This document shows, piece by piece, positions 39,797-59,913 of a stretch of 64,000 nucleotides of DNA. Positions within the stretch are counted from its first letter, which is position 1; each line of letters begins with the position of its first letter. Source of the DNA: an uncultured Poribacteria bacterium (GTDB taxonomy: Bacteria > Poribacteria > WGA-4E > WGA-3G). The stretch lies in contig OX639992.1 in assembly GCA_951828515.1 (NCBI GenBank), positions 1,602,439 to 1,666,438 of the forward strand. Reading direction: 5' to 3'. The notes beneath the pieces were generated by a model, which saw only the letters and a list, made by a program, of their open reading frames with translations, made no database searches and had not been told where the DNA came from. A program made the translations under genes and the position numbers.

Positions 39797-39837
39797 AATC
39801 CAATTTATCGTCAGTTAACCGCAAGGAACACAAAAAA

Positions 39838-41256: not shown

Positions 41257-42582
41257 ATGAAACCTCAGATGCATTCTATCGAACCTCAAGGAAAATTAAA
41301 AAATTCTAAGCGTTACGATAGAAATTTATCAAAAACCGACGACCCCAGCTTACTGACACTGCAACAGCGTGCAACAGACAAAAAAATCGTTATCGCTGGT
41401 GGTGGAACAGGCGGGCATATCTATCCCGCGATTGGTATCGCCCAAGCACTGCAACGCTTGGATACTACAGTAGACATTGCATTCATCGGTGGTTCGGACA
41501 AATTGGAATCAACGCTTGTTCCAGAACATGGGTTCCGTTTCTTGCCCATTTCGGTTGCTGGGTTTCCGCGTCGCCTCACTTTACAGTGGTTACCAACCAT
41601 CTGGAAGGCATTTCATGGACTTATCCAGTCATTGCGATATATGAAGGAGTTGAAACCAGACGTTGTTATAGGAACGGGGGGATATGTTTCAGGTCCGGTT
41701 CTGTTAGCCGGTCTTCTGTGCAAAATTCCAATTGCTATCCAAGAACAGAATGCTTCTGTTGGCTTAACGAACGCTATATTGGCACGATGGGCGGATGTCG
41801 CCTACCTTGCCATGGAATCGGTTCGCGAGAACAATTCGTTCCGACGAACCACAAATATAGAGATAACAGGAAATCCTATTCGTCCTGCAATCACCACATT
41901 CCCAAGATGCGAGGAGACCTACAGAAGGTTCGGATTGCACCCAGAACGGAAAACTATTTTTGTGATGGGCGGCAGTCAGGGTGCCCATGCTATCAATGAA
42001 GCGATTGTAGCAGCACTACCACATTTAGTCGAATATGCCGACCAGCTCCAGATCGTCCATCAAACTGGTGCAATGGAAGTAGAAAAGGTTCAAACGGCGT
42101 ATGACCGGATACTCGCTTCGCATCGAACCCTCAACTCGATTCCGACACAAGACAACAAAGCACGAGTTGAAGGTTCGGGATTCCTATATTGTGTCAAACC
42201 TTTCTTTGATACTGTCGAGGAAATCTATAGCATCGCAGACGTCATGGTGTGCAGAGCCGGAGGAATGACGATCGCCGAGGTAACCGCATGTGGTATCCCC
42301 GCAATTTTCATACCCTTACCCTCGCAAACCGGAAACAATCAAGTCTTAAACGCTCACACTGTTGCAGAAGAGGGTGCGGCTGTTGTTCTTGAACAAGATG
42401 ACTTCACAGTAGAGGTATTGGTTAAAAACCTAACGAACATGACCATGGACGGAAATACGCATGAACAGATGGTAACGGCAAGCCGAGCACTCGGTAAACC
42501 GCATGCCAGCGATGACATTGCCGAGTCGATTCTCTCAAGAATGGTAATCAGCAATCAGTTATCGGTTAAAAGAGAGCTGTGA
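41257..42582 (+). CDS. murG: Lipid II synthase MurG
   Basis: 441 residues. It transfers GlcNAc to lipid I on the inner face of the membrane. Motif GGGTGGHIYPAIGIAQAL starts near residue 48, so there is an N-terminal extension of about 45 polar residues. Also GTGGYVSGPVLLAG, QEQNASVGLTN, GGSQGAHAIN and CRAGGMTIAEV. The last residues (about VISNQLSVKREL) are coded by the start of a TCAGC repeat, so the natural C-terminus has been replaced or extended. Confidence 0.93.
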   Translation: MKPQMHSIEPQGKLKNSKRYDRNLSKTDDPSLLTLQQRATDKKIVIAGGGTGGHIYPAIGIAQALQRLDTTVDIAFIGGSDKLESTLVPEHGFRFLPISVAGFPRRLTLQWLPTIWKAFHGLIQSLRYMKELKPDVVIGTGGYVSGPVLLAGLLCKIPIAIQEQNASVGLTNAILARWADVAYLAMESVRENNSFRRTTNIEITGNPIRPAITTFPRCEETYRRFGLHPERKTIFVMGGSQGAHAINEAIVAALPHLVEYADQLQIVHQTGAMEVEKVQTAYDRILASHRTLNSIPTQDNKARVEGSGFLYCVKPFFDTVEEIYSIADVMVCRAGGMTIAEVTACGIPAIFIPLPSQTGNNQVLNAHTVAEEGAAVVLEQDDFTVEVLVKNLTNMTMDGNTHEQMVTASRALGKPHASDDIAESILSRMVISNQLSVKREL

Positions 42583-57642: not shown

Positions 57643-58434
57643 TTACGTATCACCACCAGGGATCTCTGGCCAATTGTGCTCGGGTGAATATCCTAAATCC
57701 GCTTCTGCCGGTTTCCACGCGAAACGGGAATCCGCACGACCCGCGACAGCATTATAAGCACCATACTTCACCGTCTCTGTTTTAATCGCGCGTGTAACAC
57801 ACTGCGCGACATCCCTCGGATCTACGTAAACGAACCAAGGATCCGTCACAACATCGGGAGTTGCCGGACCAGGATTTTGTCCGTCTCCATCTATGACCCC
57901 CGGACGGACATGGATCACGTCCAACCCATGCGCTTGATGATACGCTGCACCGATCCGCTCACCGAGGTACTTCGCCAACGCGTAGTAAATATCTCCCGGA
58001 CCGAACTGGAAGTCATCATCCACCTCGTAAGGGAATTTAGCACTTGGGGCAGGAGGACACGCCGAAATACTTGAGATGTTAACTAATTTCTGAACACCTT
58101 GCTTTACACAGGCTTCAGCGACGTTCCATGTCCCTTTCACCATGACATCCGCAAACAACGAGGCGGGCTTATCAGACCGTCCCCGTACCAAAGCAACAAG
58201 GTGGATAACAGCATCCTGATCTGCACACGCGGCTTCGATTTCGGCAGCATTTGTCACATCTGCCTTGATAAAAGTCGCATCTGCAACCACCCGATCCAAT
58301 TCAACAATATCAGTTAGCGTCAGCTCATACTCGGCACGCAACCGATCAATGATAAATTGTGCCAGATACCCATTCGCGCCGGTGATCAAAATATTTTTAA
58401 TTTTCCTTGCGGTTCGGTCAAGTGAATTCAGCAT
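57643..58434 (-). CDS. NAD-dependent epimerase/dehydratase family protein
   Basis: 263 residues, extended short-chain dehydrogenase. Cofactor motif TGANGYLAQF (about 18-27) and the YxxxK catalytic pair in YYALAKYLGE (about 149-158). The substrate is probably a nucleotide sugar or related polyol, not determined. The start at ATG 58434 has GAGGAA upstream. Its N-terminal codons share an 18-nt stretch (CCGCAAGGAAAATTAAAA) with the leader of the selenoprotein gene upstream, which may mark a small duplication. Confidence 0.82.
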   Translation of the reverse strand: MLNSLDRTARKIKNILITGANGYLAQFIIDRLRAEYELTLTDIVELDRVVADATFIKADVTNAAEIEAACADQDAVIHLVALVRGRSDKPASLFADVMVKGTWNVAEACVKQGVQKLVNISSISACPPAPSAKFPYEVDDDFQFGPGDIYYALAKYLGERIGAAYHQAHGLDVIHVRPGVIDGDGQNPGPATPDVVTDPWFVYVDPRDVAQCVTRAIKTETVKYGAYNAVAGRADSRFAWKPAEADLGYSPEHNWPEIPGGDT

Positions 58435-58511: not shown

Positions 58512-58856
58512 TTAGCGCGCAGATGGTATCATCTGCTCATAGAGCGCGTTGTTAAATCCGACAAAGAAACTATCTCCACTTCGCACTGTAGGCGCGCGCA
58601 GGCTACCGCTCCGTCCCATTACCACTTTTAGGATCGATTCCTGTGCGTCTTCGGTTGGCACAAATGTCTCCACGCGCCTCCCTTTTGCAACAACGATTTG
58701 CTCCGCACTGCCCATTAACTCCCATACCGCTGTCGCATCCATTTTCTCTTTTCGGGCATCCGTCCGGCTCTCCGGTTGTAATTCGTGTTCGTCAAGAAAC
58801 TCTTGAACTTTTTTACAGGAGTTTCAGCTATTCCGAAAATAAATCCAATCTATCAT
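58512..58856 (-). CDS. ArsC/Spx-like protein, probable selenoprotein (in-frame TGA)
   Basis: A downstream frame of 76 residues from ATG 58742 is open and clearly ArsC/Spx-like (IVVAKGRRVETF, GSLRAPTVRSGDSFFVGFN). Reading upstream in the same frame continues the family: an ATG at 58856 with AAGGA 11 nt before it, then MIDWIYFRNS, a TGA at 58824-58826, then NSCKKVQEFLDEHELQ. With TGA as selenocysteine the product has 114 residues, the normal length, and the TGA falls exactly on the first position of the family CxxC redox motif, giving U11-N-S-C14. A hairpin follows the TGA at once. I recall that selenoprotein members of this ArsC-like group have been annotated elsewhere. TGA is a normal stop in other genes here, so general TGA recoding is excluded. 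The alternative is a nonsense mutation or a truncated protein from 58742. A thiol/selenol redox role is inferred. Confidence 0.8.
58796..58825 (-). promoter_or_regulatory. Candidate bacterial SECIS hairpin
   Basis: Read on the minus strand from the G of the TGA: GAAACTC (58825-58819), a 16-nt loop, GAGTTTC (58802-58796), a perfect 7-bp stem. Two more pairs (TG with CA) can form inside, leaving a 10-nt loop with AAGTT. The G of that loop is the 16th base after the TGA, within the spacing reported for bacterial SECIS elements. Confidence 0.55.
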
Positions 58857-58902
58857 TTTTTTAATTTTCCTTGCGGTAGTGTTTTTCCGTCCATCCGCTT
58901 TT

Positions 58903-59913
58903 CTAATTTAATTCTTCCACGTTAATAAATCTGCCGGTGTCTCGGCTCCGGACAGCGGCATCAATTAGGGCGAGTGTTTCAATTGCATCGGCGAACGGCG
59001 AGCGAATCAGCGTCCTGTCGCCTGTTTCAATAGCACGCAACCATGCCCCGGATTTGTCTAAACCGAGACTGTTTTCGGAAACCCCCGGTTCATTAACGAC
59101 TTCACCGTTAAGGTATCCACGGATAACGTTATCCGTCATATTCGCGTGTAGCCGCAAATGTGGTCCAACGACTTCAACCTCAAAACTAAATTTTTCGGTG
59201 CCGCAGTGATTCATGTGTGTTCCGAAAACGCCGTTGTCCAGTTGATAGGTCATCTGGATGGCGTTTTCGGCATCGAATTCGGTTCGTTCCAACGCCATGT
59301 TTTTAACAGCGAGCGCGTGCGCTTGCAGAGGTTTCGGGTTTCCCATAACGAACCTTGCACAATCCAACACGTGCACCGCCTGTTCCGGTAAGGGACCCCC
59401 GCTTATCTCATATTGCAGGAACCAAGGTGACATACGGAAACTCAAAAAATAATCAACGGTACATACTGTCCGCACGAGGTGTACGGTTTCCGAAGCGATT
59501 AACGCTTTCAACTGTTCATAGAGCGGATGATAGCGGAGTTGGAACCCAACAGCAGCAATGACATCCGCTTCCTCAATGCATGCAAGGCATTTCCTGCCTT
59601 CAGCCATGTTCAAGGCAGGCGGTTTTTCAACCATCACAGGAATACCGCGGTCGCACGCCATCTGGATCGGTTCAAGACGAACAGGGGGTGGTGTCGTGAT
59701 AACCACCCCGTCCATGTCTACATCGAAAAAGGCATCCAACGCGGTAGTGGCAAGTGCGGACTCAGCATGCTTTGCGAGTTCGCGTGCCGCTTCAAGACGC
59801 ACATCATGGACGGCGACGACGCGTGCGCCGTAATTGGTTATCGCGCCTTGATGATGTCTTCCCATACTGCCAGCACCGATGATGCCTATTGCTAACGGTT
59901 TTTGAGGGTTCAC
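58903..59913 (-). CDS. Gfo/Idh/MocA family oxidoreductase
   Basis: 336 residues. Rossmann motif GIIGAGSMGRHH (about 9-20), catalytic-region EKPPALN (about 95-101), HPLYEQLK and a C-terminal substrate domain. NAD(P)-dependent sugar or inositol-type oxidoreductase; substrate unknown. GTG 59913 overlaps the stop of the upstream exported protein gene (GTGA), so they are co-translated. It differs clearly from the other family member at 26231. Confidence 0.85.
   Translation of the reverse strand: MNPQKPLAIGIIGAGSMGRHHQGAITNYGARVVAVHDVRLEAARELAKHAESALATTALDAFFDVDMDGVVITTPPPVRLEPIQMACDRGIPVMVEKPPALNMAEGRKCLACIEEADVIAAVGFQLRYHPLYEQLKALIASETVHLVRTVCTVDYFLSFRMSPWFLQYEISGGPLPEQAVHVLDCARFVMGNPKPLQAHALAVKNMALERTEFDAENAIQMTYQLDNGVFGTHMNHCGTEKFSFEVEVVGPHLRLHANMTDNVIRGYLNGEVVNEPGVSENSLGLDKSGAWLRAIETGDRTLIRSPFADAIETLALIDAAVRSRDTGRFINVEELN

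What the first reader, a model, noticed from the sequence alone, without database searches (positions are those of the whole stretch)
58512..58856. ArsC/Spx-like gene with in-frame TGA in the redox motif: probable selenoprotein missed by ordinary gene calling
The frame upstream of the called ATG continues the family alignment through a single TGA that falls on the first Cys of CxxC (U-N-S-C). The extended gene has a start codon with ribosome binding site and the normal length of 114 residues. Gene callers would start at 58742 and lose the catalytic end.
Basis: partly seen in the sequence, partly recalled or inferred. Interest (0 to 1): 0.86.

Follow-up and report, generated by a model that had tools for sequence, protein, structure and literature searches.

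The report
ArsC/Spx-like selenoprotein of a poribacterium
A small redox protein in a sponge-type bacterium (Poribacteria) contains the rare amino acid selenocysteine at its active site, so ordinary gene finders cut off its working end; the prediction holds up, but the protein belongs to a selenoprotein family that is already catalogued.

Summary
The observation and the interpretation both hold. On the minus strand, 58856-58512 reads ATG to TAA as 114 residues with one in-frame TGA (58826-58824) at residue 11, in the motif U-N-S-C. The protein matches NCBIfam NF041106, 'ArsC family (seleno)protein', at 124 bits (cut-off 85). All 71 copies found in 85 genomes of the phylum carry one TGA; the 70 I read have it at the same codon, as do all 73 loci of a wider scan (Poribacteria, Anaerolineales, Desulfobulbaceae and relatives, Gemmatimonadales). 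Five genomes carry natural Cys versions. The window's own genome has selC next to selB, plus selA and a selD with its own in-frame TGA. A covarying hairpin about 22 nt after the TGA, with nearly frozen synonymous codons, fits the published bacterial SECIS model, although the window's own copy is weak. TGA is an ordinary stop elsewhere in the window. The predicted fold is Spx/ArsC/glutaredoxin-like, but the arginine before the cis-proline of Spx/ArsC is an invariant alanine here, so 'arsenate reductase' is not supported as a function. The family has been known since 2008: a new member of a known kind. Incorporation of Sec was not tested by experiment.

The parts
58512..58856 (-). Full selenoprotein gene, 114 aa, ATG to TAA, ArsC_rel_Se_1 (NF041106) family
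58824..58826 (-). In-frame TGA, Sec codon, residue U11 of U-N-S-C
58815..58817 (-). TGT codon of C14, putative resolving cysteine
   Evidence: nearly invariant in alignment A5; replaced by T in L156 and S in L177
58789..58808 (-). Putative SECIS hairpin GUUCAAGAGUUUCUUGACGA; apical loop (A)GUU(U) at 58797-58801, about 22 nt after the TGA
   Evidence: model in PMC13188914
58868..58872 (-). AAGGA ribosome-binding-like sequence, 11 nt before the ATG
58858..58877 (-). ACCGCAAGGAAAATTAAAAA leader, a dispersed repeat of this genome
58512..58742 (-). Truncated 76-aa ORF that ordinary table-11 gene calling would report
58903..59913 (-). Upstream same-strand neighbour, Gfo/Idh/MocA oxidoreductase; its family is present beside the gene in 45 of the 74 loci compared
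57643..58434 (-). Downstream same-strand neighbour, NAD-dependent epimerase/dehydratase; its family is present beside the gene in 44 of the 74 loci compared

Best explanation
The gene encodes a UxxC selenoprotein of the ArsC_rel_Se_1 family. The ribosome reads UGA 11 as selenocysteine with tRNA-Sec (selC), SelB and a SECIS hairpin just downstream. The product is a small Spx/ArsC/glutaredoxin-fold oxidoreductase. The likely chemistry is that the Sec11 selenolate at the N-terminus of helix 1 attacks an oxidised substrate, Cys14 resolves the intermediate as a selenenylsulfide, and a cellular thiol or thioredoxin system recycles it. Shown here by sequence: reading frame, conservation of the TGA, Cys replacement in relatives, Sec machinery, hairpin and predicted fold. 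Inferred: Sec insertion in the cell, the catalytic cycle and the substrate. The confidence given is for the selenoprotein call; for the two-residue thiol-oxidoreductase mechanism it is about 0.7, and the substrate is not known.
For: NF041106 match at 124.1 bits against a cut-off of 85. 71 of 85 phylum genomes carry the gene, every match with exactly one TGA; the 70 copies read all have U at position 11. 73 of 73 loci of a collection-wide scan have U at 11, including Anaerolineales, Desulfobulbaceae and relatives and Gemmatimonadales. Cys versions CASC, CISC and CASS in five genomes, next to a relative from the same search with UASC. selA, selB, selC and selD in the same genome. The hairpin shows compensatory changes in non-Poribacteria (covariation score 0.349 against 0.183 in shuffles, 0 of 500 reaching it) and in Poribacteria (0.169 against 0.085, 0 of 500), and RNAalifold finds the same stem unaided. 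Codons 12-23 show excess synonymous conservation against the rest of the gene (p = 3e-4; Q18 CAA and L21 CTT in 70/70, E19 GAG and D22 GAC in 68/68). Loop pattern and spacing fit the published bacterial SECIS model. AF2 model pLDDT 92.8, best structural matches Spx and YffB/ArsC-like chains.
Against: The window's own hairpin is weak (local MFE -4.2 kcal/mol, against -7.5 in the published model; phylum median -7.0), and a competing fold of -8.1 kcal/mol exists in this copy, though its pairs are not kept across the phylum. Parts of the hairpin conservation could reflect protein constraint. The shuffle control does not remove relatedness. The resolving cysteine is missing in L156 (UVST) and L177 (CASS), so the two-residue mechanism is not universal. 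No expression data.
Confidence: 0.96

Rival explanations
1. The TGA is a sequencing error or a recent nonsense mutation, and the gene is a pseudogene or a shorter protein that starts at 58742.
For: Table 11 gives a 76-aa ORF from an internal ATG.
Against: The same TGA is at the same codon in 70 separate Poribacteria copies and in other phyla; residues upstream of it are conserved; several genomes are single-contig assemblies.
Confidence: 0.01
2. TGA is reassigned to an amino acid throughout this genome.
For: None found.
Against: 13 of 43 long non-overlapping ORFs of the window end at TGA, mostly with short run-on to the next TAA/TAG; the one 501-codon run-on is the next cell-wall gene after further TGAs, not a fusion. 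A tRNA-Sec with anticodon TCA is present.
Confidence: 0.005
3. TGA is read, but as cysteine or another residue, by an unusual tRNA with anticodon UCA rather than as Sec.
For: Natural variants have Cys at this position. From general knowledge, rare bacterial tRNAs that read UGA as Cys exist.
Against: selA, selB, selC and selD are complete; selD itself has the usual in-frame TGA; the hairpin fits SelB-dependent reading.
Confidence: 0.02
4. It is a selenocysteine arsenate reductase of the ArsC type.
For: Family name; Pfam ArsC hits, sub-threshold for the window protein (E = 0.024); Vibrio and Yersinia arsenate-reductase folds among the matches.
Against: Below Pfam's ArsC cut-off (15.4 against 24 bits). 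The Arg before the cis-Pro of Spx (and, from general knowledge, R94 of ArsC) is an invariant Ala here (L-R-A-P-T). No arsenic genes among the neighbours examined.
Confidence: 0.06
5. It is an Spx-like redox-controlled partner of RNA polymerase rather than an enzyme.
For: Best PDB sequence and structure matches are Spx; profile comparison probability 96.7%.
Against: Score far below the Spx models' cut-offs (22 against 75 bits for TIGR01617; 18.6-19.3 against 123-152 for Spx). The Spx Arg before the cis-Pro is Ala here. In the model the insert holds a beta hairpin at 53-65.
Confidence: 0.05

Closest known systems
NF041106 ArsC_rel_Se_1, 'ArsC family (seleno)protein' (NCBIfam); 'Arsenate reductase-like protein, NF041106, UxxC' in PMC13188914, cited there to Zhang and Gladyshev 2008 (PMC2398784, which lists 'Arsenate reductase 2, cd03032, UxxC')
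   Same: Whole-length match over the curated cut-off, UxxC at the N-terminus, size of about 110 aa
   Different: Nothing of substance; I found no paper that names Poribacteria as a host of it
Spx / MgsR (TIGR01617) and YffB-like proteins
   Same: Fold and CxxC position; best PDB matches (3ihq Z 9.0, 1rw1 Z 8.1)
   Different: About 20% identity, far below cut-offs; Arg before the cis-Pro is Ala; part of the insert is a beta hairpin in the model
ArsC arsenate reductases (PF03960)
   Same: Distant sequence and fold relation
   Different: Below the gathering score; UxxC; Arg before the cis-Pro missing
Glutaredoxin / NrdH / methanoredoxin
   Same: N-terminal dithiol-type motif, cis-Pro loop, thioredoxin fold
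   Different: Extra helix and beta hairpin between residues 41 and 79; no match over the curated cut-off

Membership tests
Bacterial selenoprotein | In-frame TGA at a redox position, conserved as Sec or Cys in homologs | tested here: met
   Sec; Cys
Bacterial selenoprotein | selA, selB, selC and selD in the genome | tested here: met
Bacterial selenoprotein | SECIS hairpin with G in the first two loop positions, 16-37 nt after UGA | tested here: met
   loop (A)G[GU]U(U), about 22 nt spacing
Bacterial selenoprotein | SECIS MFE of -7.5 kcal/mol or lower | tested here: inconclusive
   own hairpin -4.2, phylum median -7.0, best -10.3
Bacterial selenoprotein | Selenium present in the protein | not testable with these tools
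   needs mass spectrometry or selenium labelling
NF041106 ArsC_rel_Se_1 | Score over the curated cut-off over the full profile | tested here: met
   124.1 bits against 85, profile positions 1-107 of 107
ArsC arsenate reductase (PF03960) | Score over Pfam's gathering score | tested here: not met
   15.4 against 24 bits
ArsC arsenate reductase (PF03960) | Catalytic arginine before the cis-proline | tested here: not met
   invariant Ala88 at that position
Spx/MgsR (TIGR01617) | Score over the curated cut-off | tested here: not met
   22 against 75.05 bits
Spx/MgsR (TIGR01617) | Binding to the RNA polymerase alpha C-terminal domain | not testable with these tools
   needs an interaction assay

The most novel reading that the evidence does not exclude
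NF041106 proteins are a Sec-preferring oxidoreductase line separate from both ArsC and Spx, kept nearly always as Sec across Poribacteria, Anaerolineales and Desulfobulbia-like bacteria. In the latter the gene overlaps a rhodanese-rubrerythrin fusion gene, which would point to peroxide or persulfide (sulfane sulfur) handling as its role.
Probability: 0.25. Interest if true: 0.5.

Novelty: new member of a known kind. Interest (0 to 1): 0.33.

Why it matters
It shows that a selenoprotein can be recovered from raw sequence where gene calling drops the catalytic third of the protein, and it places an almost always Sec-bearing family throughout most of the Poribacteria, where I found no published selenoprotein list (a search for 'Poribacteria' with 'selenocysteine' gave two papers; one notes SelA and SelB in sponge symbionts, PMC5649159). 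The chemistry of the family is unassigned, so the overlap with rhodanese-rubrerythrin genes gives a testable lead.

Tried and rejected
A competing hairpin directly after the TGA (GAAACUC/GAGUUUC) is the most stable fold in the window copy, but its pairs break in many relatives (one pair is kept in only 29 of 53 distinct sequences), so it was set aside in favour of the second hairpin. Viral contigs held no relative. Pfam at the default threshold gave no family. A UXX-star family (NF041114) is not in the genome. Cys-bearing genomes were tested for loss of tRNA-Sec: all keep it, so Cys use is not due to loss of the tRNA. One Sec-bearing genome outside the phylum (L145, an Anaerolineales) gave no selB over the cut-off; its assembly may be incomplete.

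Full report
Observation. The feature is on the minus strand. Reading TGA as U, 58856-58512 gives 114 residues with one TGA at residue 11 in U-N-S-C. Ordinary table-11 calling gives a 76-aa ORF from 58742. AAGGA stands 11 nt before the ATG. The whole protein matches NCBIfam NF041106, 'ArsC family (seleno)protein', at 124.1 bits over profile positions 1-107 of 107, cut-off 85; Pfam ArsC and glutaredoxin hits are weak and below cut-off.

Genome and machinery. The window lies in a single-contig genome of 5.85 Mb. Its close relatives in the named collection are all Candidatus Poribacteria, so the organism is inferred to be one. The genome holds tRNA-Sec (78.1 bits; ARAGORN tRNA-SeC, anticodon TCA), selB 183 bp upstream of it (347.5 bits), selA (518.4 bits) and selD (359.4 bits). 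selD itself carries an in-frame TGA in the sequence CAGUASK. Across 85 genomes of the phylum, 71 have the NF041106 gene and 73 have tRNA-Sec; by comparing the two lists, 64 of the 71 gene-bearing genomes have a detected tRNA-Sec, the rest being draft assemblies.

Conservation. Every one of the 71 phylum matches has exactly one TGA. Of the 70 copies read, all have U at position 11, 50 as UNSC and 20 as UTSC. A scan of genome contigs gave 73 loci, all with U at 11, including Anaerolineales, Desulfobulbaceae and relatives and one Gemmatimonadales; many of these are the same Poribacteria genomes as, so the two counts are not independent. A search of 258 genomes of the class of one Desulfobulbaceae genome gave 169 with the gene; the printed list shows one TGA in nearly all and none in five. 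Those five carry TGT or TGC at codon 11: CASC in three, CISC in one, CASS in one; a further genome of the same search, G329, has UASC. Cys in place of U is thus observed directly. The Cys genomes keep tRNA-Sec.

SECIS. About 22 nt after the TGA a hairpin recurs: in Poribacteria G-Y-K-CAAG, loop AGKUN, CUUG-A-C-R-C; in the others stems such as CGCGAG/CUCGCG, CUCAAG/CUUGAG and CGCAAG/CUUGCG. Pair counts show compensatory changes above shuffles in both sets, sliding the partner lowers the signal (same calls), and RNAalifold finds the same stem without being told. In 70 Poribacteria copies codons 12-23 are synonymously frozen: CAA 70/70, CTT 70/70, GAG 68/68, GAC 68/68; excess codon homozygosity 0.39 against 0.15 elsewhere, Mann-Whitney p = 3e-4. 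Loop pattern and spacing fit the published bacterial SECIS model (PMC13188914). The window's own hairpin is weak at -4.2 kcal/mol and competes with another fold of -8.1, which is the main soft point.

TGA as stop. 13 of 43 long ORFs of the window end with TGA and the run-on is mostly short; the one long run-on passes through further TGAs into the next gene of a cell-wall cluster. A genome-wide code change is excluded.

Fold and function. AlphaFold2 on a 20-sequence alignment gives pLDDT 92.8. The best PDB matches are Spx (3ihq Z 9.0, rmsd 2.5 over 88), YffB and ArsC-like chains, then NrdH and glutaredoxins; these Z values are modest. Residues invariant across phyla in the alignment are W4, R8, U/C11, K36, G59, G81, R82, G84, L86, R87, A88, P89, G100 and N102. 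The position of the Spx arginine before the cis-proline is Ala88 here, so the arsenate-reductase and Spx roles are not supported. The most likely mechanism is a selenol-based thiol oxidoreductase with Sec11 attacking and Cys14 resolving. This is inferred from the motif and fold; loss of the second Cys in L156 and L177 shows that it is not obligatory in all members.

Neighbours. Members of the Gfo/Idh/MocA oxidoreductase and NAD-epimerase families that flank the gene in the window are present in 45 and 44 of 74 loci compared. In Desulfobulbaceae the gene overlaps by a few bases a gene for a rhodanese-rubrerythrin protein, whose family is present in nine loci. No partner common to all phyla was seen.

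Literature. 'Arsenate reductase-like protein, NF041106, UxxC' is in the 2026 catalogue of prokaryotic selenoproteins (PMC13188914), cited to Zhang and Gladyshev 2008 (PMC2398784). The finding is therefore correct, and it is a new member of a known kind.

Noticed in passing
58858-58877 (-), 58394-58413 (-), 41283-41302 (+), 39818-39837 (+): The 20-mer ACCGCAAGGAAAATTAAAAA, usually preceded by ...CCTGACCGA, is a dispersed repeat: 145 copies with up to 2 mismatches in the genome against 0 for the reversed pattern. Six of the 12 exact copies read end 0-1 nt before an ATG, so it may be a repeated ribosome-binding leader or mini-element.
   Followed up: partly
57643-58434 (-): The called start of the epimerase gene (58434) lies upstream of the repeated leader at 58394-58413; homologs begin a few residues before KILITGA, so the true start may be downstream (for instance TTG at 58389).
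   Followed up: partly
L020 (own genome C1:4977731-4978654): selD is itself a predicted selenoprotein with an in-frame TGA (CAGUASK).
   Followed up: partly
L146 3326-4136, L147 3324-4151 and seven further loci: A rhodanese-rubrerythrin fusion gene overlaps the stop of the NF041106 gene in Desulfobulbaceae, which suggests a shared peroxide or sulfur function.
   Followed up: partly
L156 and L177: Two family members lack the second cysteine of the motif (UVST, CASS), a natural test of whether a resolving cysteine is needed.
   Followed up: no
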